A stretch of DNA of 64,000 nt from Chloroflexota bacterium (GTDB taxonomy: Bacteria; Chloroflexota; Anaerolineae; Aggregatilineales; Phototrophicaceae): the NCBI GenBank assembly GCA_016223085.1, contig JACRPS010000014.1:199269-263268 (forward strand), in the 5' to 3' direction. A program made the translations under genes and the position numbers. The notes beneath the pieces were generated by a model, which saw only the letters and a list, made by a program, of their open reading frames with translations, had not been told where the DNA came from and did not search any database. Positions 24,660 through 36,513 of this stretch are shown in pieces. Within the stretch, counting starts at the first letter, position 1, and each line of letters begins with the position of its first letter.

Positions 24660-24732
24660 GCGCTCATAGCTCAGTGGATAGAGCACCAGTCTTCGGAACT
24701 GATGGTCGGGGGTTCGAATCCCCCTGGGCGCA
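24660..24732 (+). tRNA. tRNA-Arg(TCG), integration target
   Basis: The acceptor GCGCTCA pairs with TGGGCGC, with discriminator A. The D-arm is AGCTCAGTGGATAGAGC. The anticodon loop CTTCGGA gives anticodon TCG (CGA codons). The T-arm is GGGGG-TTCGAAT-CCCCC. The first anticodon-stem pair is a C-A mismatch. CCA is not encoded. The 3' half overlaps, in antisense, the end of the serine recombinase gene, and near-copies of the last 16 bases occur at 35111 and 36498. Confidence 0.95.
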
Positions 24733-26482
24733 AAAAATGACCATCACTAAGCATGGCCTGTATTTCGTCGTCTGTCGCTTCTGGATAGGCGGCTTTTAAT
24801 TCCTGATACAGCCTATCAGCCTCTAATGCGGCTTGGGTTTCGGCCTCTAACCCCTCTTGGGTTATAACTTGCTCATCTGCAAGGTGGTCTATCAACTCCA
24901 CTTTACCCCCAACATAGAACCGGGCTACGTCCGAACCGTAGTGTAAAACCGCGTGACAATCGGCCTTAAACATGAGTGCCACAACCCGCTTACCCTGTAT
25001 AAAAACCCGTTCCAAGATACGGCGGATAAGCTGATTTTGCGCGTCAATATCCCCGCCACAAGCGTCAAAGTGCGACGAAAAGTTGTCTATCAAGTCGGCG
25101 GCAACCTCTAGTAAGTTGGTATCAGCGGCGGGTTGGAGTTTTTCTAGCTCTTGCTGTAACTCCATACGCTTTGTGAGAAATTCGGTTTTGTCAGTGACAA
25201 GTCCAAAATCAAAGCGATAGTCCATCCGCTCAATTACCGCTTTAATTTCTTCTAGCCGTTTCTCTATGCTTTCATCCCGCATTTCAAGGGCTACGGCTTT
25301 TACCAGCTTTGCCCGCCAATCGGCGGGTACTCTCAGGTTACGGAGTATAAACAAAACCTGTTCGTCTACGCCCTCTACGGCAACTTCCGCTTGCTTACAT
25401 TGGTAGCCCCGGTTTCGCGCCATACATTTGTACCGCTTGTATTCGTGTCTGTTGCCGCGCCCCAAGTTCGTCCGACAGTGCATTTTCGCCCAAAAGGGGG
25501 CTTTCCCCTCTACCTCATCACTCCGGCTATAGCAATCCCAACAATAACAAAGCCCCTGTAGCATGTACCCCCCGTGTTTATTTGCCCCCCGCTTGACAAC
25601 CGTTCGGCGGGCTTTAACCTCTTGAACCTTATTCCATAGCTCAAGCGGTACAATCGGTTCATGCCGTCCGTTGCTTTCCTCAATCGGGTTATCGTATAGC
25701 CGCTTTCCTCTTGCATCGTAGCGGCTTTCCTGATGTCTCAGCTTGCCAATATAGATCGGATTGCAAAGTAGCTCTTTCATGCCGTCATGCGAAAAACGCC
25801 GCCCCTTGATCGTGCGATACCCCGCCTCATTCAGCAGGTGGGCAATATCGTTGTAGGAGAATTTTCCGGTACTGTATTGCTCATACGCCAGCAATACGCC
25901 TTGTCGTTCGTGTTCGTTGATAACTAGCTCATTTCGTCCGATTTGCTTCCCGGTTAAGGGGTCTATATCCTTCTTGATGTTGTAGCCGAAAACCCGTGTT
26001 GAACTCGTGTAATACCCCTGTAGAAACAACTCCCGATAGGCATTACGGTATTTTTCGCTTAGTTCGTTGGAGTAGTATTCGGCCTGTACTTCCATTATGC
26101 CCTCAATAAAGCCGCCCATACTACCATCATGTTCTGACATCTCCGTAGCCGAAAAAACGGGTATGCCATAATCGCGGCGAAACTGTGTTTTTACCGCCCT
26201 TGCGTCTGTCCGGTTGCGGTTAAGCCTTGACCAATACGCCACTACAACGGCCTGAAACAAGCCCTCTTTTGCGTCTATCTGCATTTGCTTAAATTCGTCT
26301 CTCTTGGTGGTACGGGCGGATTGCGCCTCATCTGTATAGATTTTGACGATTACCCCGCCCCGGTTCTGGACAAACTGCTGAATGACACGCAGTTGAACAT
26401 CAAGGGACATATTGCCGCGTTGTTCCTCATGGGAATAACGGAGATAGGCCGCAAAGGTCACGGGCTGTTTCTGTACTGGCAT
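24671..26482 (-). CDS. large serine recombinase/integrase
   Basis: The product is 603 residues. The N-terminal resolvase domain has the catalytic Ser17 in YLRYSHEEQ, then DEAQSARTTKRDEF and YWSRLNRNRTDA with conserved Arg residues. A Recombinase domain (FGYNIKKD onwards), a zinc ribbon (CYCWDC ... CMARNRGYQC) and a coiled coil (about 440-490) follow, the usual layout of phage or element integrases. The last 20 residues (LRPGGFEPPTISSEDWCSIH) are encoded antisense within tRNA-Arg. The ATG at 26482 has AAGGA eight bases upstream. A palindrome at 26499 may regulate it. Confidence 0.93.
   Translation of the reverse strand: MPVQKQPVTFAAYLRYSHEEQRGNMSLDVQLRVIQQFVQNRGGVIVKIYTDEAQSARTTKRDEFKQMQIDAKEGLFQAVVVAYWSRLNRNRTDARAVKTQFRRDYGIPVFSATEMSEHDGSMGGFIEGIMEVQAEYYSNELSEKYRNAYRELFLQGYYTSSTRVFGYNIKKDIDPLTGKQIGRNELVINEHERQGVLLAYEQYSTGKFSYNDIAHLLNEAGYRTIKGRRFSHDGMKELLCNPIYIGKLRHQESRYDARGKRLYDNPIEESNGRHEPIVPLELWNKVQEVKARRTVVKRGANKHGGYMLQGLCYCWDCYSRSDEVEGKAPFWAKMHCRTNLGRGNRHEYKRYKCMARNRGYQCKQAEVAVEGVDEQVLFILRNLRVPADWRAKLVKAVALEMRDESIEKRLEEIKAVIERMDYRFDFGLVTDKTEFLTKRMELQQELEKLQPAADTNLLEVAADLIDNFSSHFDACGGDIDAQNQLIRRILERVFIQGKRVVALMFKADCHAVLHYGSDVARFYVGGKVELIDHLADEQVITQEGLEAETQAALEADRLYQELKAAYPEATDDEIQAMLSDGHFLRPGGFEPPTISSEDWCSIH
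24717..24732. repeat. putative attL core (tRNA-Arg 3' end)
   Basis: AATCCCCCTGGGCGCA is the last 16 bases of the tRNA. It is the left copy of the repeat found at 35111 and 36498. Confidence 0.6.
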
Positions 26483-26498
26483 GGTGGTTGTCCTTTCG

Positions 26499-26512
26499 TC
26501 GTATAGATACGA
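26499..26512. promoter_or_regulatory. palindrome upstream of the integrase (possible operator)
   Basis: The sequence TCGTAT-AG-ATACGA is a perfect 6+6 palindrome 17 bases upstream of the integrase ATG. Its position suits a repressor site. No direct evidence exists beyond the symmetry. Confidence 0.4.
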
Positions 26513-26520
26513 TCAAGCCG

Positions 26521-26650
26521 CCCGCTAGGGGATAGCATTGGAACGGCTACAAAAAGGACAGTAGAATAAGTGTAGCCGATTACAGCTTATACCTGTAAGG
26601 CGGTTAGTCCCTAGCGGGTGTCTCGTCACTCGTTAGGGACGTTTTTATTT
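26521..26650 (+). promoter_or_regulatory. structured leader/small RNA with terminator and competing helix
   Basis: A 14-bp stem with two G-U pairs (26607-26620 with 26627-26640) and a 6-base loop is followed by GTTTTTATTT, a strong plus-strand terminator. Its left arm contains CCCTAGCGGG (26609-26618), the exact complement of CCCGCTAGGG at 26521-26530, so the two pairings exclude each other. That is the architecture of an attenuator or of a regulated small RNA. No ORF of useful size lies between 26483 and 26607. Confidence 0.55.
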
Positions 26651-26731
26651 CCCCTCAGTATAGGGCTACCGTCCTATTTCGTCAACGATTTAGGCAAGTC
26701 GAAAATTTAACAAGTTCTTAACAAAAAATGC

Positions 26732-26760
26732 TTGCTTTTCTGCATTTCAGGGTGTAGAAT
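26732..26760 (+). promoter_or_regulatory. likely promoter of the element's rightward operon
   Basis: TTGCTT (26732-26737) and TAGAAT (26755-26760) have a 17-base spacer. The gap 26483-26851 holds this promoter, the structured segment before it, and an imperfect CGCCCCG...CGGGGCG hairpin followed by TTTT near 26790-26830 that could attenuate the leader. Confidence 0.5.
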
Positions 26761-26851
26761 TAGTATAGTAAGTAGTTCACACACATGAGCGCCCCGCGAA
26801 CATTTAACAACTTTGTTCCGGGGCGTTTTCTATTCCGAAAAAGGGGGATGT

Positions 26852-27046
26852 ATGCGAGACCCATTGTATAAGGCCGCCCGCCGCGTGATAGCCGCCCGTA
26901 AATACCGGGCTAGGCTAGTAGCACAAGGGGCTGAACCGAGACGGTTGGCAAGAGTAGAGCGAACAATCGCCCGCAACTTGCGCCAGCATCGGGCTATCAA
27001 AATTCTGATGGTTGAACTTGAAGGGGGTGAGGAACTTGGTAAATGA
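26852..27046 (+). CDS. small basic protein of unknown function
   Basis: It is 64 residues from ATG 26852, which has AAGGGGG seven bases upstream; the frame also reaches TTG 26813. The product is highly basic (MRDPLYKAARRVIAARKYRARLVAQ...) and predicted helical, with a short acidic end (VELEGGEELGK). It might bind nucleic acid. It is the first gene of the element's rightward operon and overlaps the next gene. Confidence 0.65.
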   Translation: MRDPLYKAARRVIAARKYRARLVAQGAEPRRLARVERTIARNLRQHRAIKILMVELEGGEELGK

Positions 27047-27929
27047 CCTAAAGCGACAACTGATAGAGCAAGGGGTTAAGCCCGCTGAGATACGCAAACT
27101 AGAAGCGCAAGCCCGCAAACAGGCCGCGAAACGACAGGGCGAAATAAAAGCGGTTTTAGAGGCAAGTCAACCCGAATGGGCAAGGCAAGCCAAACAAGCC
27201 GCCGCTGAGGTAACAGCAAAATTCGGCGTGAAGGCCGTCAATTGGCTTACCTCTCGCAACAGCCCCCTCACGTTGGTTCTTATCCTGATAGCTGAGTATA
27301 TCACCTTAGCTGAGGCGTTTGGGTATCTTGCCAGTGTCCCTATCGCTTTGATCTTAGCCGGGGCGGTTCTGACGATGTTGGTTTATCTGGTATTCCGCCG
27401 CGCCGTGTTGGAGCATAGCACCCAACGGGGCAACCGCGAACGGGAATACCCCTCAGTGTGGTTAGCGTTACGGCGCGGCTGGCGTTTGATCGTCGGCGGC
27501 AAGAGGCCGCGCAACGAAACCGAACTAGACCAACTAGACGCGGCAGTAAGCGGGTTTATCCTGCTGCAAGTGTTAGGTTCGCTCTATGCGCGGCTACACG
27601 GGGTGATCGTGAAGTACAACGGGCGTTCGTTTACTGAGGCGATAGAGGGCGTTTTCGCCAGTGACTTGAATACCCTGTTTTTGACCCTGATAGCGGTACT
27701 GCTAACGGTACGGCTTATCAGCAGTTTGGAGCATGTCGCTCACCAAGCGGCGGCAACGTTTGTTAGGGTAGCGGGTAAGGATGGCCTAGACGACAGTTTT
27801 TTAGCCTCATTCGATATGCCATCACTGGAAACGTTGGAGCAAGAGGAATTGAGCAAGCTGTTGCAAGAGGCGGTTTGGATGCACTCGTTACCGAACAGCA
27901 GCGAACCAACGAACTACTCCAAAGCCTGA
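27036..27929 (+). CDS. membrane protein of unknown function with basic helical N-terminus
   Basis: The start is uncertain: TTG 27036 and GTG 27027 both lie behind a GGGGGTGAGG-type Shine-Dalgarno, and the frame extends to 27012. The product is about 300 residues. Residues 1-70 are charged and helical (coiled-coil-like). There are two or three TM segments around 85-130 (LTLVLILIAEYI, VPIALILAGAVLTMLVYLVF), another near 180 and one near 225-245. No catalytic motif is seen. The fold might be a mobility or partition accessory, but there is no evidence for either. Confidence 0.7.
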   Translation: MVNDLKRQLIEQGVKPAEIRKLEAQARKQAAKRQGEIKAVLEASQPEWARQAKQAAAEVTAKFGVKAVNWLTSRNSPLTLVLILIAEYITLAEAFGYLASVPIALILAGAVLTMLVYLVFRRAVLEHSTQRGNREREYPSVWLALRRGWRLIVGGKRPRNETELDQLDAAVSGFILLQVLGSLYARLHGVIVKYNGRSFTEAIEGVFASDLNTLFLTLIAVLLTVRLISSLEHVAHQAAATFVRVAGKDGLDDSFLASFDMPSLETLEQEELSKLLQEAVWMHSLPNSSEPTNYSKA

Positions 27930-28147
27930 TAACCCTAGTGGAAAATGGAAAATTTTCCATTTTCCAGCCCACAAGAGAGGGCGTTAAGAAACGTTCCCCC
28001 AAAGTCGAAAGGGTCAAGGAATGGTTAAAAGCCAACCCTGACAAAGCCAAGCTATCAAATCGTGAAATAGCACGATTGTTAGATGTCACACACCCCACAG
28101 TAGCACAAGCAAAAGCCGATGTTATGGGCGGGGGTGTTACGGATTAG
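27875..28147 (+). CDS. small helix-turn-helix protein
   Basis: The 90-residue frame starts at TTG 27875 with AGAGG four bases upstream and overlaps the end of the membrane-protein gene by 55 bases in another frame. The N-terminus is helical (LVTEQQRTNELLQSLITLVE). The C-terminus has a clear HTH (LSNREIARLLDVTHPTVAQAKADV) of the kind that reads DNA with its last helix. It may regulate the operon or bind the element's origin. Either role is inference. Confidence 0.7.
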   Translation: MDALVTEQQRTNELLQSLITLVENGKFSIFQPTREGVKKRSPKVERVKEWLKANPDKAKLSNREIARLLDVTHPTVAQAKADVMGGGVTD

Positions 28148-28197
28148 ATCAAAACAGTAACAGACGGGCGAGTAACGCCCAAAGGAGAAAAACAACA

Positions 28198-28710
28198 ATG
28201 TCAGCAGAAAGCAAGAAATTACGCGATATGGCGGCAAAGGCGCGACAGGATTACGCCGATCAAGTGGGGGCTGTAGAGACAGCTATCGCGTTCTACACGC
28301 AAGCCCTACGGCAGAATATGGACGCGCAAGCTGTATTTGACGCGAAACGGTACTTACCCAAGCTATACGAAAAGCAAAACGATCTTGCGTTTATGCGGGC
28401 GTACAACGAAAAAGTGTGGGAACACTGGGAGAACCAAGCGGGGGCTATCGAACACGGCGAACGGGTACAGGCCGGGCAAGCGGCAATCGAAAGTGAGGCC
28501 GCCCGCATTGACGCCCTGCTAAACAATGCATTAGGCGTTAGCACGTTACCGAAAGCAGAAAGGGCGCGGGCTGTCCAGAAATTACTTGACGGCGAAGGTA
28601 GTAAACGCCTTGATGGTAGCAGCTTTATTGTCACTACCGGGGCGCATGGTCTTTCGGAAAGGGTCACATTGGCAGCGGACGGCAGTTCAGTAAGTTTTAG
28701 TTCGGAATAA
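28198..28710 (+). CDS. unknown 170-residue element protein
   Basis: A good Shine-Dalgarno (AAAGGAG) lies ahead of the ATG. Residues 1-110 are predicted alpha-helical and charged (YADQVGAVETAIAFYTQALRQN, WENQAGAIEHGERV). Residues 120-170 (LLDGEGSKRLDGSSFIV..., ending VSFSSE) resemble the C-terminal half of the next gene product. No known family is recognised. There are no cysteines and no membrane segments. It is the first of three closely spaced small genes ahead of the primase-helicase. Confidence 0.75.
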   Translation: MSAESKKLRDMAAKARQDYADQVGAVETAIAFYTQALRQNMDAQAVFDAKRYLPKLYEKQNDLAFMRAYNEKVWEHWENQAGAIEHGERVQAGQAAIESEAARIDALLNNALGVSTLPKAERARAVQKLLDGEGSKRLDGSSFIVTTGAHGLSERVTLAADGSSVSFSSE

Positions 28711-28722
28711 GGAGAAACGCCA

Positions 28723-28938
28723 ATGAACGAAATTATCGAAACGATGTTGCTAAACGCTACGGGTGATAACCCGCTTGCGTGGGATGAAAGTAAGGCCGCA
28801 ATTGCCCGCCTCTTGAATGGGGCGGGAACGGTGAAAGATGCTAACGGGACACGGGTTTTACGGGTTGTAGGTAATCGGGGTATTGCGGTTTGGGTTAGCT
28901 TGGATGCTGAGGGTCAAGTCAGCTTTGAAACGGAATAG
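28723..28938 (+). CDS. unknown 71-residue element protein, relative of the preceding one
   Basis: The ATG follows AAGGAG by eight bases. The product aligns with the last 50 residues of the upstream 170-residue protein (LLNGAGTVKDANG... VSLDAEGQVSFETE against LLDGEGSKRLDG... VTLAADGSSVSFSSE), so the two share a small beta-rich domain, probably by duplication. No function is assigned. Confidence 0.7.
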   Translation: MNEIIETMLLNATGDNPLAWDESKAAIARLLNGAGTVKDANGTRVLRVVGNRGIAVWVSLDAEGQVSFETE

Positions 28939-28944
28939 CGCCCC

Positions 28945-29361
28945 ATGAAAAGAGAACGATTTGAGGCTGACATTCTCCTGACAGGAGAGTTTCGCTATGT
29001 ACGTAACATCTCGTACCGCCGAATGGTTGAAATCTTGAGAAGGTTATGGGGTGAACTGGAACGGGCGTATCAGCAAACGGGGCAAGCGCGGGTTGAGTAC
29101 CGCAACTTGGCGGCAAGAGGTAATCCCCATCGGATTATCACAGTTTTGAACTGGCAACCGATATGGGGCATTGAAGAGTTCGCTGAGTTCAAAACTCTCA
29201 ATTTTCCCGATAGGGACACGGTTTTGATCGTGAAAGACATCCCTATGAACACATACGGAATTCTCGAAACGCGGTTAATCGAAAACCCGGCGAAACTACA
29301 GAACCAGCTAAGGCCGCTTATCGAAAGCGAACGATCTAGGCCGGATTTGCCAGAAGCGTAA
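28945..29361 (+). CDS. unknown 138-residue element protein
   Basis: The ATG lies 6 bases after the previous stop. The sequence mixes strands and helices (RRMVEILRRLWGELERAYQQTG, ILTVLNWQPIWGIEEF-like centre, LIVKDIPMNTYGILETRLI). No catalytic signature, cysteine cluster or TM segment is visible. It closes the small-gene cluster; a hairpin follows at 29368. Confidence 0.7.
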   Translation: MKRERFEADILLTGEFRYVRNISYRRMVEILRRLWGELERAYQQTGQARVEYRNLAARGNPHRIITVLNWQPIWGIEEFAEFKTLNFPDRDTVLIVKDIPMNTYGILETRLIENPAKLQNQLRPLIESERSRPDLPEA

Positions 29362-29367
29362 AACGAA

Positions 29368-29401
29368 AACCGCCCCTAGTACGCACATACCGGGGGCGGT
29401 T
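29368..29401 (+). terminator. hairpin between small genes and primase-helicase
   Basis: AACCGCCCC (29368-29376) pairs perfectly with GGGGCGGTT (29393-29401) around a 16-base loop. There is no clear T-run, so partial termination or attenuation upstream of the replication gene is more likely than full termination. Confidence 0.5.
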
Positions 29402-29431
29402 CATCCCACAATGAAGGGGGAAAATCTATCT

Positions 29432-32400
29432 ATGTCTAAGTCTATTATAACACGTCTTTTCGCTATGTCTATGCGGAATGACATCCATCTGAAACAGAGC
29501 AAAGGCGTTGACCTAGCAAGAGGCTGGAAAGCCGTCAACTGGACAATGAGCGAACTTGCCGCGCATTGTGCCAGCGGTAAGGCTATGGGGGTATCTGTCT
29601 GGAAAGGCGGCTACCGGAAAGCCGAAAACGTCCTAGAAACCCACATCTTGGGGCTAGACTTTGAGAACGGCGGAAAAACCGCCGAAATGCTGGCAACAGA
29701 TGAATGGCTAAAACCGTTCGCTGGCGTAATCATGCCAACGGCCTCAGACACGCCAGAAGCCCCAAGAGCTAGGGTATTCATCCCTTTAACACGAAGCGTT
29801 ACGAGTGATGAGTACAAGCGTTTGTACACTGTTTTTGTATCTCGCTATGAAGGTTCGATTGATCGTTCTACAAGCGATACAGCTAGGTTTTTCTTTGGCG
29901 CGTGTCCAGACCCTAGCCGGGTTTTCGTCAACGATTATGCTTTGCTTGACGTTGATAAGTTCCTGCTAGAACACCCTTTAGACGAACAAAAAGGGCGCAA
30001 ATTAGGGCGCAACACAATTGCAAGTGTAGTAACGCCACAATCGTTAGAAAACGCCTTAAAACGCGATTTTAAGCCTGTAGCGATACATGGCGGCAACGAG
30101 GTAGAGCGAGAGGTTTTAGACCTACTTCAATACGCGGCTAGGTTATGGGCGGGGGATGAAAAACCGCCCTACGATACTTGGCTTAGTACGGTGTTCGCTG
30201 CACATCACGCAAGCAACGGCAGCGCCCTTGTAAGGGATTACATAGCGTCTAACCCGCTTTTCTGGCGTTGGAACGATAACGCGGGTTTTGTCGAATGGTG
30301 GAACACGGCGGTAAAAGACGAAACGGCAGAACCGATAACCATAGGGACACTCAAGCATTACGCCCGTTTAGCGGGTTGGGGTACGCATACTCAGTTTGCG
30401 CTCAAGCGCGTTGATAAGGTGGTTAACGGGCGTTACCTGTCTGACGTGCTTACGCCCGATGATCTACCAAGCGGGGCTAACGTCCTGATTAAACAGCAAA
30501 CGGGCGGGGGTAAAACAACGTTCGCTTTTGAGGCCGCGAAACGGTTTCATCCTAGCAGGGTGCTGTATATCGCGCCGTTTATCACGCTCAATTTTGATCT
30601 TGCGGGCAAGAGTAGCATCCCGACGAACGTCTACAAAGATCAAAACAACTGGAATGAAAAAGGGGCGCTGGCGGCTACGTTCCAATACCTAACTGAAAAG
30701 GGCTATGACCCCGCCAGATACGGCCTCATCGTGATAGAGGAAATTCATCAGGTGCTAGGTCACTTGCTCTTAAAATCGCACATGAAACCCAACGAAATTG
30801 TCAAAGCCCTGTTGTTCCTACGGGATGCACTCAGGAGCAAGGCAACGGTTCTCATGGTGGATGCTGGCATTAACGCCAATACTGTTGAATTTATCGAAAG
30901 GCTTTCCGGCGAACAGGCTTACGTAATCGTAAATGAGCATGTCCAGCCGAAAAGCCCCGTAACGCTGATAGACCCTGACACGGCGCTAGGGATGCTGCTA
31001 CAGGCAAGCGGCAAAGGGGTAGTAGCAGCGGACGGGCGAAAGACGGCTAGGCTGTATCACGATTGGCTAGGCGGGCGGGGGATGCTCATCACGGGCGAAA
31101 CGTCAAACCAAGCCGGGGTACGGGCTTTCATGAGAGACGTTGAAAACGGCGCTAGAACGGCCTCTAGCGTGGTTTACAACGGGGCTATGGGTAGCGGGGT
31201 TAGCATCAGTGAGACAATGCCCGATTTGCTCATTCAGGTTTGCGAACACTGGGGCGCGTCAACACAGATACAGCTATTGAACCGCTACCGTAATCAGCCT
31301 GAGAACGTCTACCTTGTCTACAGCGTGAAAAAGCACACGCGCATTGATGAAACAACCGCCCGCGCAAGCGTTGATCGTAAATATGCGGCGGAATACGAAA
31401 GCCTGCAACGCTTAATCGGCGCAACGGCGGGCGAAAAAAGCGACATAGCCAAGATCGTAGACGATCTACACGTCAAGCTGTTGATCGAACAAAACGAACA
31501 ACTGATAGACCCTCTCGCATACTACCGCGAAACGCTCAAAGCAGACGGTAGAGAACTGCTAGGGCAAGGGGCGGCTACAGCATCGGAAACGATCAAACAG
31601 CTAAGGGCGGCAGACAGAGAGGCCGTGAAACGAGAGTATCCAAACTGGCGCTTAGGCGTAGTGCTGGACAGGGAAAGCGAACAGGAGATAGCGGACATGG
31701 ATAGGGTAGACCTGATTAGAAGCGGCCTACACACAACGGTTTTTGAAGTGTTCAAACGTGACCCCGTAGCGGGCGGAAAATGGAACGACATAGAACTGTA
31801 CCTAGCCGCCAACCGCTACCAAAAAGGGATAGGCCACATAGAACGCGCCCTGTCGCCGCATGTGGATGTCACTTCCAGCCTGTTAGTAATTGCGAGTGCC
31901 GATAGCGCGAAACATCAAGCGCGGTTATGGGCGGCGGTTTATCTGTTACTCAAATCGTGTGCCTTTCTCTTGCCCGATTTGAGAGGACGGCTTACCCATG
32001 AGGCGTTACAAGAGGGCGCGGGGAAGTTCATAGGCATGATTGAAAACCTTGAAAAGCAGTACAACGCCGTTGTAGATCGTAGCCGCGATTACCTGAGTAA
32101 CCTTGCCCTTGAGCAAGAGGGGGCGGAATTGGCCTTGACCCTGCTTAACAAGGTTTTGGGCAAGGTGGGGATTAACCTCAAGGCCGTACCGCGTAGGCAA
32201 CGGGTAAACGGCAAACCGGATTACGCCCGTGATGCAAACGGCAAACGGATTAATGACTACGTGGTAGAGGACGTTGACCTACTGGTAGAGATTTTGGCAC
32301 ATCGGAAAGCCGTAGCCGAAAGCAAAGATGAGGTTGTAGCCGATGTGGTCAATACCGTGTGGTCAGACGGGGCTACCGATATAGAGGACTACATAAACGA

Positions 32401-32521
32401 ACTCGTCAAAAGCGGGAAACTAGTCGAATGGGCTACGAAAGTACAGGCCGAAACGGGCGGTAACAAACGGCGGGAACAACTGGCGTTAGACCTGTTGTAC
32501 CCCGATGATGTGCTGTACTAA
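29432..32521 (+). CDS. primase-helicase replication protein (AEP-like plus SF2-like)
   Basis: The frame opens at ATG 29411, but ATG 29432 is the one preceded by AAGGGGG. With 29411 numbering (1036 residues) the parts are as follows. An archaeo-eukaryotic primase-like domain has D83-x-E85 in GLDFENG, an R-x-FIPL strand near 121-126 and D151...AR159. A PriCT-like helical segment with paired Trp (WW 296-297) follows. The helicase has Walker A QTGGGKTT (363-370), a DEAH-type IEEIHQ (442-447), YNGAMGSGVS and an NRYRN motif near 640. This resembles replication proteins of integrative plasmids (CyRepA1/origin-binding-protein-like helicases). It probably primes and unwinds the element's own origin. 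Confidence 0.8.
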   Translation: MSKSIITRLFAMSMRNDIHLKQSKGVDLARGWKAVNWTMSELAAHCASGKAMGVSVWKGGYRKAENVLETHILGLDFENGGKTAEMLATDEWLKPFAGVIMPTASDTPEAPRARVFIPLTRSVTSDEYKRLYTVFVSRYEGSIDRSTSDTARFFFGACPDPSRVFVNDYALLDVDKFLLEHPLDEQKGRKLGRNTIASVVTPQSLENALKRDFKPVAIHGGNEVEREVLDLLQYAARLWAGDEKPPYDTWLSTVFAAHHASNGSALVRDYIASNPLFWRWNDNAGFVEWWNTAVKDETAEPITIGTLKHYARLAGWGTHTQFALKRVDKVVNGRYLSDVLTPDDLPSGANVLIKQQTGGGKTTFAFEAAKRFHPSRVLYIAPFITLNFDLAGKSSIPTNVYKDQNNWNEKGALAATFQYLTEKGYDPARYGLIVIEEIHQVLGHLLLKSHMKPNEIVKALLFLRDALRSKATVLMVDAGINANTVEFIERLSGEQAYVIVNEHVQPKSPVTLIDPDTALGMLLQASGKGVVAADGRKTARLYHDWLGGRGMLITGETSNQAGVRAFMRDVENGARTASSVVYNGAMGSGVSISETMPDLLIQVCEHWGASTQIQLLNRYRNQPENVYLVYSVKKHTRIDETTARASVDRKYAAEYESLQRLIGATAGEKSDIAKIVDDLHVKLLIEQNEQLIDPLAYYRETLKADGRELLGQGAATASETIKQLRAADREAVKREYPNWRLGVVLDRESEQEIADMDRVDLIRSGLHTTVFEVFKRDPVAGGKWNDIELYLAANRYQKGIGHIERALSPHVDVTSSLLVIASADSAKHQARLWAAVYLLLKSCAFLLPDLRGRLTHEALQEGAGKFIGMIENLEKQYNAVVDRSRDYLSNLALEQEGAELALTLLNKVLGKVGINLKAVPRRQRVNGKPDYARDANGKRINDYVVEDVDLLVEILAHRKAVAESKDEVVADVVNTVWSDGATDIEDYINELVKSGKLVEWATKVQAETGGNKRREQLALDLLYPDDVLY

Positions 32522-32539
32522 GTATTATAAATCTATAAT

Positions 32540-32593
32540 GTAGTCGCAAATTGGCCGTTATATCTAACGTTCGTAAAGCCAATTTGCGACTAC
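32540..32593. repeat. 16-bp perfect inverted repeat after the replication gene
   Basis: Arms 32540-32555 and 32578-32593 are exact complements around a 22-base spacer that itself holds CGTTA-TATC-TAACG, giving a branched or cruciform shape. No T-run follows. It may be a replication origin feature, a recombination site or a terminator. Confidence 0.65.
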
Positions 32594-32616
32594 AGATTGT
32601 CACTGAGGGGGATAAA

Positions 32617-32739
32617 ATGTTTAATTGTTACGAGTGTGGCCGCCCCGTAAAAGAACGCGGGCAACGGTATTGTAAACAGTGTCTAACGGGTATCAGACGG
32701 CGCAAGGGCAAGCGGAAAGGCCGGAAACAAATCAGGTAG
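32617..32739 (+). CDS. 40-residue zinc-ribbon protein with basic tail
   Basis: ATG 32617 is preceded by GAGGGGGATAAA. The product MFNCYECGRPVKERGQRYCK... has two CxxC pairs (YECG at residues 4-7 and CKQC at 19-22), then a Lys/Arg tail (RRRKGKRKGRKQIR). A small nucleic-acid-binding zinc ribbon is the natural reading. Its size is below usual annotation limits, but the Shine-Dalgarno and motif support it. It lies downstream of the large inverted repeat. Confidence 0.6.
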   Translation: MFNCYECGRPVKERGQRYCKQCLTGIRRRKGKRKGRKQIR

Positions 32740-33086
32740 CCCGCTGGCGTAAGCCGTCAGAGGGTGAAACTTCCCTATTAGTGTAGGGGGGTCAAGGGGT
32801 GGTAACAAACATTGTACTGCTGGTTCGTATCTCATCTCGCTATCACCCCCTTTCCTAATCTTTTCTCTCTCTCTCACTTTGTTAACTCTCCTGTTACTAT
32901 CTCTCTCGTTTTGCTCCTGTTGTCTCAGCTTGCCGTGTTCTCTCTGTCTCATTCTCATCTCTCTGAGTTGTAATCTAAGCCCGTTTCTTGTAATTGTCTC
33001 TTGCTTGTTTTCGCTCTTTTTGTGTCGTATAATCACAGGTATACAACACATTCTCAAAACTGAGAACAAAACAGGAGAGAAACGAC
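32740..33086. other. gap with pyrimidine-rich tract and integrase promoter
   Basis: No gene is seen. From about 32826 to 33025 the plus strand is strongly C/T-rich, with runs such as TCTCTCTCTCTC. At the end, TTGTTT (33005-33010) and TATAAT (33028-33033), spaced by 17, form a good promoter for the tyrosine recombinase. A GGAGAG Shine-Dalgarno near 33073 precedes its start. Confidence 0.6.
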
Positions 33087-34064
33087 ATGCTACAGCCCGC
33101 CCCTACCAACCCAAGCAAGCCAAGCCCCGTTAGCAGCATCGGCAACGTACCGCCTAGCTACTACCCCGCCTCTATGACACGCACAGTAAAGAACCGCCTT
33201 GCTACCTACGCGCACTATGTTGGAAACAGCGGCGGCAAATGGGAGAGGCACAACTTAGAAGCATATGCCCTGTTTCTTTCTCAGTCTCTACAGCCTAACA
33301 GCGTCAAAGCACACTTGAGTACCGTTAGACAAGCCCTTGCCCGCCTTGCCCGTGATAGAGACTACTGGTACTCATACACGCAAGGTATGCCGATGCTTGA
33401 GGCTAAGGCCGCCGTTGATGAGATTGTTACCCGGTTGAGAGACGCGGTAGAGCCGTTCAAAGTCCCTACGAAAATCAGCCAAGAAACCCCCGATGATACA
33501 TTCAAGCGGCTAACCCTAGCAGAACAACGGGAATTACTCAGCAAGCCCGATAGAGACACGTTAGCAGGGTTAAGAGACGCGGCAATCATCGGCATGGCAT
33601 TGGCTACCGGGCTTAGGGCTGATGAGCTATGTTCGCTCATTGTTGCGGACTTGCGCCGATACGTCGGGGGTGAACTAGCCGTACACGTCAGAGAGGGCAA
33701 AGGCGGCAAGGAAAGGTTAGTACCCTACGGCGCGGAAAAGGGTGTTTTAGTGTTGGTTGATCGTTGGCTTGCGCGGGCGGGCATTACTGAGGGGGATGTA
33801 TTCAGGGGCGTTACGAAGGGCGGGGATGTGTTGCCTACGGGCATTGACCCTAACACCTTTGCCCGCCGATTGGCGCGGTATGCCGATGTGAACCCCCATG
33901 ATTTAAGGCGTACCTACGCGAAAACCCGGTATCAACAGGGTATGGACTTGCTGGCGATACGTGACAATCTAGGCCATGCTGATATACGCACAACACAAGG
34001 ATACATCGGCACGATTGATGTTAGTGAGCGTGTTCCTACGGCGGGTTTGGATTACGGGGGGTAG
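33087..34064 (+). CDS. tyrosine recombinase/integrase (XerC/D-like)
   Basis: This 325-residue site-specific recombinase has an N-terminal SAM-like DNA-binding domain (about 30-110) and a C-terminal catalytic domain. All catalytic residues are in place: R177 (ATGLRADEL), K208 (KGGKERLVP), H271 and R274 (NPHDLRR), H297 (LGHADI) and the nucleophile Y306 (QGYIG). It could integrate the element at tRNA-Arg, as tyrosine integrases typically use tRNA 3' ends, or resolve dimers. It has its own promoter at 33005-33033. Its coexistence with a serine integrase is unusual. Confidence 0.93.
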   Translation: MLQPAPTNPSKPSPVSSIGNVPPSYYPASMTRTVKNRLATYAHYVGNSGGKWERHNLEAYALFLSQSLQPNSVKAHLSTVRQALARLARDRDYWYSYTQGMPMLEAKAAVDEIVTRLRDAVEPFKVPTKISQETPDDTFKRLTLAEQRELLSKPDRDTLAGLRDAAIIGMALATGLRADELCSLIVADLRRYVGGELAVHVREGKGGKERLVPYGAEKGVLVLVDRWLARAGITEGDVFRGVTKGGDVLPTGIDPNTFARRLARYADVNPHDLRRTYAKTRYQQGMDLLAIRDNLGHADIRTTQGYIGTIDVSERVPTAGLDYGG

Positions 34065-34568
34065 GTTAGTGATAGCAATACTTAGAAGTTATTTAACAAA
34101 TTACTTAAATAATTCATAAAATGGTTTCTATACTGAGTTTAGATGACTTAATTATCCATTAATGCAAGGTAAGTAAGTGTTTCATTAACATATATTTCCA
34201 TAATATAAATCCTATTTTAGGTAAAACTAAATAATTGTTTAACTAAATTTAATATTGAATTTAACTATGGTTAAAATTTGCCCTCTTAGAGCGTGTGCAT
34301 CACGTCAGACCCCCGTTGTCTCTATATCCGTTGCGGATATATGTTATCGTTAACATATGCTGCCCCTCTTTCCCCTCTTATTGATACTTTGTCTCAATTA
34401 GAAAGCCCCCTAAACGTTGCACTTGCTGGCGCTAATTGAGTGAAAAAATCTTATTAATCTATAACAGGCGCGCAAATGGCAAAGTATCTAATACATACTA
34501 TGCCATTTATGCGCCGAATTACGAACTATTACAACAAAAAGCCCCTTATCGGGGCGCTTGTTACTCGC
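34065..34568. other. AT-rich palindromic region, possible origin or regulatory zone
   Basis: There is no convincing gene. The plus strand is very AT-rich from 34080 to 34275. Then come two overlapping palindromes: TATATCCG-TTG-CGGATATA (34323-34341) and ATATGTTA-TCGT-TAACATAT (34339-34358). A 9-bp inverted repeat follows (CTCAATTAG 34393-34401 with CTAATTGAG 34432-34440). Such AT-rich DNA beside palindromes suits an origin or an operator cluster. Confidence 0.5.
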
Positions 34569-34934
34569 CTATGTGTTACTTTTCCGTTTCCGATAGGCCG
34601 CTTGCTTGCAGGCATTTGAGCAATACCGATGTAACGGCGCGGCATTTCCATCACGCCAGTATTCCTTACCACAATGCTCACAAGTCAGTTTATGGGCTTG
34701 CGCGGCCTTTGTTTCCGCCCCTCTTTTGGCCGCTTCTCTGTGCGACACCGCCCGCCCGTGTGCCATGCGGTAGGACTTCTGTTTACACGCATCAGAACAG
34801 AACCGCGTATCCCTACGGGGTGAACCGAAATAGAGGCCGCAAACCTCACAGGTTATTCCCCAACGCCCATGAGCTAACCCCTGTTTATGGCGGGGTAGGT
34901 TGTGCCAGTGTTGCCAATCAAAGGGGTTTGCCAT
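34569..34934 (-). CDS. protein with two FCS-like zinc fingers
   Basis: ATG 34934 has GGAGAG eight bases upstream and is chosen over the longer frame that begins at 35000 (121 residues). Two tandem zinc modules are seen: CEVCGLYFGSPRRDTRFCSDACKQ and CEHCG...HRYCSNACKQ, each with CxxC...CxxxC spacing followed by K-Q-x-x-YR. The tail is basic. The repeats look like an internal duplication of an FCS/MYM-type finger that binds nucleic acid. It is the only element gene besides the serine integrase on the minus strand. The longer plus-strand frame on top of it lacks any such pattern. Confidence 0.75.
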   Translation of the reverse strand: MANPFDWQHWHNLPRHKQGLAHGRWGITCEVCGLYFGSPRRDTRFCSDACKQKSYRMAHGRAVSHREAAKRGAETKAAQAHKLTCEHCGKEYWRDGNAAPLHRYCSNACKQAAYRKRKSNT

Positions 34935-35010
34935 AATGTTACTCTCCGAAGTGTTACCGCTATGATCGAAAGGGTAACACATCTGACCGTAACAAGTCAA
35001 GAGGAAATAA

Positions 35011-35040
35011 AAAACCCCGGTTGTTCAGGCCGGGGCTTTT
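35011..35040. terminator. bidirectional terminator-like hairpin
   Basis: A 6-bp GC stem (35015-35020 with 35030-35035) has As before it and CTTTT after it on the plus strand, and the mirror arrangement on the minus strand. Confidence 0.6.
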
Positions 35041-35110
35041 CTCTCTCTAGTTTTTGCTGAATGGGGGGATTATCAGCATAATTTCATGTGGTGGTAGTTT
35101 CTTGCGCCCC

Positions 35111-35126
35111 AATCCCTCTGGGCGCG
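35111..35126. repeat. putative attR 1 (tRNA-Arg 3'-end copy)
   Basis: AATCCCTCTGGGCGCG is identical to 36498-36513 and differs from the tRNA end at two positions. It is likely the right end of the 10.4-kb element. Confidence 0.55.
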
Positions 35127-35273
35127 TTCACGGAAGTCCGACTTAATCTATTCGCTCTATTAGGCTCAGCGGTGATGAGCAGGATTACCGCTGGCTCGTT
35201 GTTGGTGTAATGCTGCTTGTTATACACTGAATATAAGTACTTGGATGTTTTTACTCAGGAGTTGTTTGGTACC

Positions 35274-36371
35274 ATGCGTAATTTATATCCAATAATCGTT
35301 CTTTTCGCTCTTTTGAGTATTGTAGCCTCATCAAAGGTTGCCTCTAGCCAATCCGATGTGATGGAATGCCTGAATTCTCGGGCAGGTATCACTGTCGAAG
35401 AAGCTATAAAGACAATGACCGCTGAAGAAATTCTGATGCATCGTCCCTTCGTGCCAACAGATATTGAGCTTTTTAACCCGTCTGTCTATCCTGATGGATC
35501 TGAAATGCAGCCTCCCAGGGGCGAAGGACCCACTGAATCTGAAGTGCTTAACCTGCTGAGAGATTATCTTGAGGACGAATTTCCGCAGGACCAACAAGCA
35601 CAGTTAACGTCCCTTGTGCTGTTTAACGACCCTGACGCTGTTGCCACAATACCGAGTCCGACGTTACGGGCAGGAATGGTTGCCTTGCGCGCAACGCTGG
35701 CAGAACCCGCCATTGACGTGATCCTGCATGGGGAGACCGCAAATGGTAAGGCTTTGGTCGCCAGCGTTCAGTTTAATGATGATTTGCCATCAAACGTGTT
35801 TGGAACCGTATCTTATATTGACCCAATGACAATTGAAATCAATGGATTTGGTCGAGCCGATTACCCTTTCATGTTTACTCGGACGTTAGCGCATGAACCC
35901 CTTCATAGTGATTCCTTTAATGGGGTATACGAAGAAGGTATTCTGACTGCCCTGGATACGCTTGTTTATTTGGAACAACTGTCTCGTCACCCTGAAATGG
36001 CAACGATCGGAACTCAGTTTGCTCGTTTTCACAATGCAAATGCGCTTGCTCGGCTCAATTCAGGTACGGGTTCGGACTTGGGGCTGTATAAAACGAACGG
36101 CGGTATACAAATCTTTCCTTGCAGTGCTACGATCACGTTTACATCTTTCTGGGAGCGATATCGAGATAATCCAGCCTTTGAGGTGTCGCCCGGTAATGAG
36201 CTATTGGGACTGTATTTGGAACGGTTACAGGAACCTGGTAAACCGGTCTGCTTAGCCGACAAGTTCGACAAGGGGCTGGTGGATTGTATTGACCAGAATC
36301 AGAACGCGGTTACTGATGAAGAGATAGTCGCGGCGGCGGCAGCACTCAAGTTGGCTCTTCCGGCTGAATGA
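35274..36371 (+). CDS. secreted protein with HExxH motif (putative metalloprotease)
   Basis: The frame begins at 35217, but ATG 35274 gives a proper signal peptide (MRNLYPIIVLFALLSIVASS) and has AGGAG upstream; the product is 365 residues. Residues 207-211 are HEPLH, fitting the zinc-protease HExxH pattern, with EE 220-221 downstream as possible third ligand. The C-terminus has an EF-hand-like calcium loop (DQNQNAVTDEE). Cysteines suggest disulphides. The family is not recognised, so protease activity is inference from the motif. It is the only gene between the two right-hand att-like repeats, so it is likely cargo. Confidence 0.7.
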   Translation: MRNLYPIIVLFALLSIVASSKVASSQSDVMECLNSRAGITVEEAIKTMTAEEILMHRPFVPTDIELFNPSVYPDGSEMQPPRGEGPTESEVLNLLRDYLEDEFPQDQQAQLTSLVLFNDPDAVATIPSPTLRAGMVALRATLAEPAIDVILHGETANGKALVASVQFNDDLPSNVFGTVSYIDPMTIEINGFGRADYPFMFTRTLAHEPLHSDSFNGVYEEGILTALDTLVYLEQLSRHPEMATIGTQFARFHNANALARLNSGTGSDLGLYKTNGGIQIFPCSATITFTSFWERYRDNPAFEVSPGNELLGLYLERLQEPGKPVCLADKFDKGLVDCIDQNQNAVTDEEIVAAAAALKLALPAE

Positions 36372-36497
36372 GCACATAAATGACTTCGATATGGTCAGGT
36401 GTCCTTTTTGTCGGTGATGTTGGGTGGCGACGTGCTATAATTGCGTAAGTTGCGTCCACACTGGAATTTTGAAGGAATGCACTGTATTTGATCTTTG

Positions 36498-36513
36498 AAT
36501 CCCTCTGGGCGCG
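36498..36513. repeat. putative attR 2 (tRNA-Arg 3'-end copy)
   Basis: AATCCCTCTGGGCGCG matches the copy at 35111 exactly. The preceding TTTG also echoes the tRNA TTCG. It marks the outer right border next to trpS. Confidence 0.55.

What the first reader, a model, noticed from the sequence alone, without database searches (positions are those of the whole stretch)
29432..32521. Primase-helicase fusion as the element's replication protein
One protein combines an AEP/PrimPol-like domain (DxE, R-x-FIPL, D...AR) with a P-loop DEAH-type helicase and a PriCT-like linker. It resembles self-replication proteins of plasmids and satellites. It is 1,029-1,036 residues and its long C-terminal 350 residues have no recognised domain. 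This could define a new replicon family.
Basis: partly seen in the sequence, partly recalled or inferred. Interest (0 to 1): 0.65.

Follow-up and report, generated by a model that had tools for sequence, protein, structure and literature searches.

The report
Plasmid replication protein with swapped primase
A small mobile element inserted in a bacterial chromosome carries one protein that probably starts the element's own DNA copying; its helicase half is related to known plasmid replication proteins, but the primer-making half is of an unrelated enzyme type, and relatives in the same bacterial family carry one type or the other.

Summary
The gene at 29432-32521 encodes an intact 1029-residue protein. 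Residues ~31-183 are modelled as an archaeo-eukaryotic primase (AEP; best solved match cyanophage S-2L PrimPol, Z 11.1). A weak PriCT-2 stretch, an SF2 helicase of the CyRepA1/UL9 kind (~345-680) and a C-terminal region follow. The C-terminus has no Pfam name but has homologues. The gene lies in an 11.8-kb insertion between tRNA-Arg and trpS with a serine and a tyrosine recombinase; no capsid, relaxase or partition gene was recognised. Most likely it is the replication initiator/primase of an integrated plasmid. It is not a CyRepA1 (94.7 bits against a cut-off of 200; AEP instead of DUF3854), and AEP proteins with UL9-like helicase parts were reported in 2018: a new variant of a known kind. 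The interesting part is modularity: in this bacterial family the same helicase/C-terminus carries either an AEP or a TOPRIM-like N-terminus (one pair has 49% identical helicases and unrelated N-termini), and one TOPRIM-like version sits on a probable circular 17.2-kb plasmid. The inverted repeat beside the gene is not shared by relatives. Replication itself is untested, and this protein is very divergent.

The parts
29432..32521 (+). rep gene: AEP primase + PriCT-2-like + SF2 (UL9/CyRepA1-type) helicase + C-terminal region, 1029 aa (ORF opens at ATG 29411, 1036 aa)
29522..29980 (+). AEP primase domain (aa 31-183): motif I D76xE78, Arg (R114) and no His at motif II, motif III D144, R152
30158..30364 (+). 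PriCT-2-like stretch (aa 243-311), weak
   Evidence: Pfam PF08707 E 0.0013, below cut-off; homologous stretch of G411 protein 1.8e-10
30464..31471 (+). SF2 helicase core (aa 345-680): Walker A G360-K361-T362, EEIH (E437), D477, G587, motif VI Q614..R618.R620
   Evidence: these residues are invariant in an alignment of this protein and six relatives
31472..32518 (+). C-terminal region (aa 681-1029), homologous to the C-terminus of CyRepA1-type Reps; proposed origin-binding part (inferred)
24660..24732 (+). tRNA-Arg(TCG), target gene whose 3' end now differs from that of relatives
24717..24732 (+). attL repeat at tRNA 3' end
36498..36513 (+). attR: matches the tRNA 3' end of relatives, next to trpS
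35111..35126 (+). third att-like copy inside the insertion
24671..26482 (-). large serine recombinase, 603 aa; gene overlaps tRNA-Arg by 62 nt; likely integrase
33087..34064 (+). XerC/D-like tyrosine recombinase, 325 aa
34081..34280 (.). 20% GC tract, candidate origin/unwinding element or recombinase arm sites (inferred)
32539..32594 (.). perfect 17-nt inverted repeat, 22-nt loop, just after the rep stop; role unknown
27875..28147 (+). small ORF with weak HTH matches, contains a 28-bp perfect palindrome 27939-27966

Best explanation
The protein is the replication initiator and primase of a plasmid-like element that is integrated at the 3' end of tRNA-Arg. Shown by sequence and model: an AEP domain, an SF2 helicase of the UL9/CyRepA1 kind, a C-terminal region shared with other such Reps, and att-like repeats at the ends of an insertion. 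Inferred: after recombinase-mediated excision the C-terminal region binds the element's origin, the helicase opens it (the 20% GC tract at 34081-34280 is the best candidate), and the AEP lays the first primers for the host polymerase. Related Reps carry a TOPRIM-like N-terminus instead of the AEP on the same helicase/C-terminus, so the helicase and C-terminus, not the primase, look like the part that defines this kind of Rep.
For: Domains. Helicase+C-terminus aligns with that of L099 over 664 columns (24%, E 1.2e-18) and with CyRepA1 of Tolypothrix over 274 (E 1.9e-12), in a set of 10 sequences. CyRepA1 is required for pSYSA to stay an independent replicon (PMC9978351, passages). A named AEP-type relative lies on a plasmid of Ca. 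Chlorohelix and is annotated CyRepA1 family. A same-genus TOPRIM-like relative (L109) lies on a 17,383-bp contig with an exact 141-bp terminal overlap, as expected of a circle, with an actin-like (ALP, ParM-type) gene. Integration: tRNA-Arg adjoins trpS in 3 of the 11 loci of other genomes fetched for this tRNA (G401, G412, G403), and 36498-36513 reads like the tRNA end of relatives. Primase exchange: L108 (AEP) and L109 (TOPRIM-like) helicase+C-termini are 49% identical over 673 columns while their N-termini have no match under E 0.01; L108's N-terminus is 40% identical to L107's, whose helicase is only 27% identical. AEP types as one clade rejected (p-AU 5e-55); L108+L109 sisters at 100/100.
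Against: No replication, priming or unwinding was measured. This protein is very divergent: highest identity 21% in the tree alignment, end branch 3.46, so its own place is unresolved; against Chlorohelix its helicase reaches only E 5e-4. Its own matches to Pfam helicase models are under their cut-offs. Motif II has no His. The model of helicase+C-terminus is unusable (mean pLDDT 40.9), so DNA binding by the C-terminus is only analogy. The AT-rich tract has no repeated words beyond shuffles, and 6 of 7 relatives' loci have no 200-bp window under 31% GC. No genome was seen with smpB, tRNA-Arg and trpS all in the empty order: the left neighbours come from G433 (L010), the right ones from three others. 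Full-length TOPRIM-like relatives also occur in viral contigs. No partition or transfer gene was recognised in the element.
Confidence: 0.75

Rival explanations
1. The element is a phage satellite or cryptic prophage and the protein is its phage-type replication protein, with packaging supplied by a helper phage.
For: The AEP module is related to that of phage primases, where it is fused to a VapE helicase; the serine recombinase matches PHROG integrase 95 (3.7e-78) and the 143-aa ORF phage HNH-type families; UL9-type helicases occur in a Leptolyngbya phage and as full-length proteins of 1240-1259 aa in viral contigs (5 of the 6 loci; the sixth is cut by its contig end).
Against: No structural or packaging family among the 9 element proteins scanned with PHROGs. 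The AEP-type relative with a named setting is on a plasmid, and 12 of the 14 plasmid records matched are from cyanobacteria or Chlorohelix and match in the helicase.
Confidence: 0.15
2. Defence or repair enzyme carried as cargo rather than a replication protein.
For: AEPs also work in repair and in CRISPR adaptation (recalled; the CRISPR-associated CAPP and Prim-PolC are among the structural matches).
Against: No PADLOC match for 8 element proteins; the UL9/CyRepA1 helicase partner is known from replication initiators.
Confidence: 0.04
3. A relic: an old integrated plasmid whose Rep no longer works.
For: Long branch, no motif II His, a single copy in the genome, three att-like copies suggesting old tandem events.
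Against: A 1029-codon frame without stops, both recombinase genes open, motif I/III and Walker residues kept. AEP families without the His exist (PMC5862659, passages).
Confidence: 0.2

Closest known systems
CyRepA1/CyRepA2 replication proteins of cyanobacterial plasmids (NCBIfam NF042913)
   Same: SF2 helicase of the same kind (E 6e-27 over 351-678) and a homologous C-terminal region; plasmid setting; a tyrosine recombinase gene beside it in Nostoc pC052_A
   Different: N-terminus is AEP, not DUF3854/TOPRIM; 94.7 bits against the 200-bit cut-off; the five cyanobacterial proteins fetched are 1049-1191 aa
All3500-family AEPs with C-terminal SF2-like domains akin to UL9 (Kazlauskas et al. 2018, PMC5862659)
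   Same: Same order: AEP then a UL9-like helicase part; carried by integrated mobile elements
   Different: All3500 members have a characteristic His in motif II (passages read); this protein has none there. Direct sequence comparison with their examples was not made
Ca. Chlorohelix plasmid Rep WP_341471863.1 (1007 aa)
   Same: AEP + UL9/CyRepA1 helicase + C-terminus, same phylum, named plasmid
   Different: 24% overall identity; its helicase passes the CyRepA1 cut-off (326.9 bits)
Phage AEP-VapE primase-helicases (PHROG 256, e.g. Corynebacterium phage StAB gp47)
   Same: Related AEP module
   Different: Helicase is VapE (PF05272), not UL9-like SF2
Herpesvirus origin-binding protein UL9 (PF02399)
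   Same: Distant SF2 helicase similarity (E 1.4e-3; relatives pass the cut-off)
   Different: UL9 has no primase domain (recalled); relation of the two C-termini not tested

Membership tests
AEP superfamily | AEP fold | tested here: met
   Model core aa ~31-180; 6zp9 S-2L PrimPol Z 11.1, rmsd 3.9, 133 aligned, the only Z of 8 or more; other AEPs at Z 4.1-7.5, mixed at Z 6.8 and below with non-AEP rows such as HP0184 and pMV158 RepB; Foldseek E 4.5e-4, the only match under 0.001
AEP superfamily | Motif I hhhDhD/E | tested here: met
   L-G-L-D76-F-E78; D76 invariant in 27 AEP rows
AEP superfamily | Motif III hD/E | tested here: met
   I-D144, invariant in 27 rows
AEP superfamily | Motif II sxH | tested here: not met
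   No His between residues 98 and 120; R112 and R114 invariant in 27 rows. PMC5862659 (passages) says this His is family-specific and is Arg/Lys in DR0530-like AEPs, so the superfamily assignment rests on fold and motifs I and III
All3500 family (PrimPol-PV1) | His in motif II | tested here: not met
   as above; not filed as All3500
PrimPol-PV1 supergroup | Motif IV Rh arginine | tested here: inconclusive
   R152-F: the Arg is invariant in 27 rows, but its place in the flange strand was not checked on the model
CyRepA1 (NF042913) | score over curated cut-off 200 | tested here: not met
   94.7 bits, E 6.3e-27, aa 351-678
CyRepA1 | N-terminal DUF3854 (TOPRIM-like) | tested here: not met
   No DUF3854; a profile from 5 cyanobacterial N-termini finds only those 5 of 20 proteins
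CyRepA1 | homologous helicase and C-terminus | tested here: met
   C-terminus weak: 3.8e-5 against a profile of nine Reps trained without it (set of 20), none of 500 shuffles reported at E<=10
SF2 helicase | Walker A, DExH, motif VI arginines | tested here: met
   G360-K361-T362, E437 (box reads EEIH), Q614, R618, R620 invariant in 7 aligned proteins
UL9 / PF02399 | Pfam gathering score 20 | tested here: not met
   17.2 bits; relatives L002, L099, L108, L109, L110 pass, L107 has no PF02399 match
PriCT-2 (PF08707) | Pfam gathering score 22 | tested here: inconclusive
   19.4 bits; homologue G411 41.5 bits
Plasmid replication initiator | required for autonomous replication | not testable with these tools
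   no experiment

The most novel reading that the evidence does not exclude
In Chloroflexota mobile elements one Rep family (UL9-type helicase + C-terminus) is a platform on which non-homologous primases are exchanged: AEP, TOPRIM-like and at least one unassigned N-terminus (L110). The swaps happened repeatedly and in part recently (49% identical helicase halves with unrelated N-termini), so origin recognition and priming chemistry evolve independently within one protein.
Probability: 0.65. Interest if true: 0.6.

Novelty: new variant of a known kind. Interest (0 to 1): 0.48.

Why it matters
Bacteria use DnaG-type primases for their chromosomes, archaea and eukaryotes use AEPs, and how one type could displace the other is an old question. 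A Rep family in which both types sit on the same helicase, within one bacterial family, gives natural matched pairs to test whether the primase can be exchanged without changing the origin. It also points to plasmid replicons for Chloroflexota, a phylum with few genetic tools (the last point is recalled).

Tried and rejected
Searches that found little: single-protein scan of viral contigs, no pattern match; AEP-pattern scan of viral contigs with A2, 160 stretches, none confirmed; first genome-contig scan with A2, 80 stretches, none confirmed; second, with L108+L109, 86 stretches and 2 loci, which are those two records themselves; same query in viral contigs, none of 170. The helicase scan of viral contigs gave 6 of 118; the phage-AEP scan gave 563 of 595, best 80 kept, of which 25 went into the AEP alignment. 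The single sequence matched 4 of 400 phylum genomes, this one included. So how widespread AEP-type Reps are outside the Chloroflexota genomes searched is not known.

NCBIfam CyRepA1 across 400 phylum genomes: 173 have a match at E<=0.001 but 1 of 400 is over the cut-off; 5 of 14 control genomes also match, none over it.

Inverted repeat as a shared origin: rejected; 11 other rep genes were examined, of which L099 has only 217/239 bp of flank and Nostoc C052 none upstream. As a terminator: by eye no T run follows it on either strand. Sigma-70 scan: 11 sites against 11.0 expected, so the 11-of-12 site on the minus strand at 29471-29444, which would give an antisense RNA over the rep start as described for pSYSA, is only a lead. 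Rfam: only the tRNA and a sub-threshold match on its other strand. Helicase+C-terminus model: too poor to search. Combined full-length alignment A9 was dropped because helicase fragments were drawn over the AEP region.

Tree labels: L110, the Leptolyngbya phage protein and the truncated Chlorohelix L005 were left unlabelled; G411, G457 and G410 (AEP without this helicase) were left out. TOPRIM for L099 and L109 rests on Pfam matches under the cut-offs (24.6 bits against 27.2; 16.2 against 22.1) and on their mutual N-terminal match (1.8e-11); for vL085, vL088 and vL089 it was read by eye. G736 and G792 match in the AEP part and were not followed. E-values of my own scripts are for sets of 10-20 sequences (or one locus set) and are not comparable with database E-values.

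Literature: no report of AEP-for-TOPRIM exchange on one Rep helicase was seen in the listings or in the four papers read in passages; the held library lacks most subscription journals.
Full report
What is there. The ORF 29411-32521 (+) is open over 1036 codons; ATG 29432 (1029 aa), 10 nt after GAAGGGGGA, is the likelier start. It is the only match in its 6.0-Mb genome. The genome belongs to Chloroflexota, by kinship: in the search's own grouping G409 is of the same genus, and the stretch of record JAIOHM010000231.1, 'Anaerolineae bacterium', that was fetched (L115) is contained in G409's contig C183.

Primase. A profile built only from 25 phage AEPs was run on 20 proteins and finds seven: this protein at E 6.2e-15 and, more weakly, G410, Chlorohelix, G457, L108, G411 and L107; it finds none of L099, L109, L110, the five cyanobacterial CyRepA1s, the Leptolyngbya phage protein, L005 or the viral L085/L088/L089 proteins. 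The AlphaFold2 model of aa 1-345 from 27 rows has mean pLDDT 62.0; ten-residue blocks from 31 to 180 lie at 69-94, the rest mostly under 60. The best solved match is the AEP domain of cyanophage S-2L PrimPol (Foldseek E 4.5e-4; Z 11.1, rmsd 3.9, 133 residues). Next come Prim-PolC and LigD at Z 7.3-7.5, and further down RepB', CAPP, AsfvPrimPol and Pri1, mixed with some non-AEP rows such as HP0184 and the pMV158 RepB initiator. D76, T103, R112, R114, D144 and R152 are invariant in the 27 rows. The motif II His is absent; by the account in PMC5862659 (passages) this His is family-specific and is Arg or Lys in DR0530-like AEPs. PriCT-2 is sub-threshold here, but the G411 protein, whose residues 83-385 match residues 2-322 of this protein (blastp E 9e-21) and which shares the ITIGTL stretch, has it at 1.8e-10.

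Helicase and C-terminus. CyRepA1 (NF042913) matches aa 351-678 at 6.3e-27, below its cut-off. SF2 motif residues are invariant in an alignment of this protein and six relatives. The C-terminus is not orphan: a profile of nine other Reps' C-termini, trained without this protein, reports it at 3.8e-5 in a set of 20 while none of 500 shuffles is reported at E<=10; the match is weak next to those of the other Reps in that set. Pairwise with L099 the helicase+C-terminus alignment runs over 664 columns at E 1.2e-18.

Relatives. With a profile of this protein and Chlorohelix's, 8 of 98 family genomes and 5 of 396 class genomes match at E<=1e-6, this genome counted in both. Full-length helicase relatives of 1018-1048 aa: G402 (L107) and G449 (L108) with AEP, G458 (L099) and G409 (L109) with a TOPRIM-like N-terminus, G705 (L110) with an N-terminus that matches neither. 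G457, G411 and G410 match only in the AEP part.

Primase exchange. Among ten N-termini, matches under E 0.01 occur only within three sets: {this protein, Chlorohelix, L107, L108, G411}, {L099, L109}, {two cyanobacterial CyRepA1s}; L110 matches none. Among the helicase+C-termini, this protein and its eight relatives (Chlorohelix, L107, L108, L110, L099, L109, two CyRepA1s) are all connected, and the G411 C-terminus matches none. L108 and L109 are 49% identical over 673 columns of helicase+C-terminus and have no match before it; L107 and L108 are 40% identical in the N-terminal module but 27% in the helicase. In the tree of 17 rows L108+L109 are sisters at 100/100, and holding the four AEP types together costs 248 log-likelihood units (p-AU 5e-55); starred branches force at least 3 changes of the AEP label. 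That result leans on the L108/L109 pair; this protein's own long branch is unplaced. An assembly chimera could make one such pair, but each ORF is continuous and both types have further examples in the same bacterial family.

The element. The 11.78-kb stretch 24733-36513 has 49.8% GC against 57.8% in the rest of the window. Its left end is tRNA-Arg(TCG). The sequence AATCCCTCTGGGCGCG, which is the tRNA 3' end and next base in several relatives, is found at 36498-36513 next to trpS, while the tRNA here ends CCCCCTGGGCGCA. Of 11 loci of other genomes fetched for this tRNA, three (G401, G412, G403) have trpS within about 100 bp of it, the empty right side; G433 (L010) has smpB and the 264-aa ORF before it, as here; none shows both sides at once. 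A third copy at 35111-35126 divides the stretch into ~10.4 kb with all the mobility genes and a ~1.4-kb piece with one 384-aa ORF, as if two insertions lay in tandem (inference). The serine recombinase gene overlaps the tRNA by 62 nt. Of its ten relatives fetched at about 38% identity or more, nine run convergently into a tRNA gene (Val or Asp), seven of them overlapping it by 27-64 nt and two ending 38 and 70 nt short; of three more distant ones two lie next to tRNA-Asp. One search lists many more distant matches that were not examined. It is therefore the likelier integrase, and the XerC/D-like tyrosine recombinase may resolve multimers or act in excision (inference). The 200 bp at 34081-34280 have 20% GC, the lowest in 463,267 bases of this genome scanned together (next 34%); four other stretches of the genome go down to 30%. 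It is a candidate origin, unproved.

Mechanism and comparison. The best-supported account is the one given under Best explanation. It works like CyRepA1, which by PMC9978351 (passages) is needed for pSYSA's independence, but it fails two CyRepA1 membership tests (cut-off, DUF3854). The fusion type as such is known (PMC5862659, section 17 read whole: All3500 AEPs whose C-terminal parts are homologous to phage families of which one is most similar to UL9). DUF3854 in CyRepA is described as possibly TOPRIM-related in PMC10079941 (passages). PMC10899382 was read in passages. All other papers were seen only in search listings.

Verdict. Observation confirmed; interpretation right about what the protein is, too strong about a new family and about the inverted repeat. 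The protein alone is moderately interesting; the repeated exchange of unrelated primase modules on one Rep helicase raises it.

Noticed in passing
window 24671-26482; L030-L035, L037-L039, L027, L029: Large serine recombinases whose genes run convergently into tRNA genes (Arg here; Val and Asp in relatives): 9 of 10 close relatives, 2 of 3 distant ones examined. The Islander abstract (PMC4383910, seen in a listing) credits tRNA islands to tyrosine integrases.
   Followed up: partly
window 35111-36513: Third att-like copy and a 1.4-kb segment with one 384-aa ORF without a Pfam, NCBIfam or PHROG match, possibly a second, tandem insertion.
   Followed up: partly
window 27939-27966: 28-bp perfect palindrome TGGAAAATGGAAAATTTTCCATTTTCCA inside a small HTH-like ORF; may be an operator or origin box.
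   Followed up: no
window 29444-29471, minus strand: 11-of-12 sigma-70-like site with extended -10 pointing antisense across the rep start; the number of such sites in the region is no more than chance.
   Followed up: no
window 29368-29401: 9-nt inverted repeat (AACCGCCCC/GGGGCGGTT) in the short gap before rep; possible leader structure.
   Followed up: no
L109 (G409:C183), 17,383 bp: Probable circular plasmid (141-bp exact terminal overlap) with a TOPRIM-like UL9-type Rep and an actin-like gene, in the window's genus.
   Followed up: partly
L085-L090 (viral contigs): Proteins of 1240-1259 aa (L086 cut by its contig end) with, by eye, a TOPRIM-like N-terminus and a UL9-type helicase.
   Followed up: partly
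L046 (G403): Genes that look like a CRISPR-Cas locus (by eye, no family search) beside a tRNA-Asp serine recombinase.
   Followed up: no
window 34569-35000, minus strand: 143-aa protein with paired zinc-ribbon motifs, similar to phage HNH-type families (1.9e-9).
   Followed up: no
L112 (G411): 926-aa protein with the nearest AEP-PriCT-2 module to this Rep's but a C-terminus that matches none of the Rep helicases: the primase module also has other partners.
   Followed up: partly
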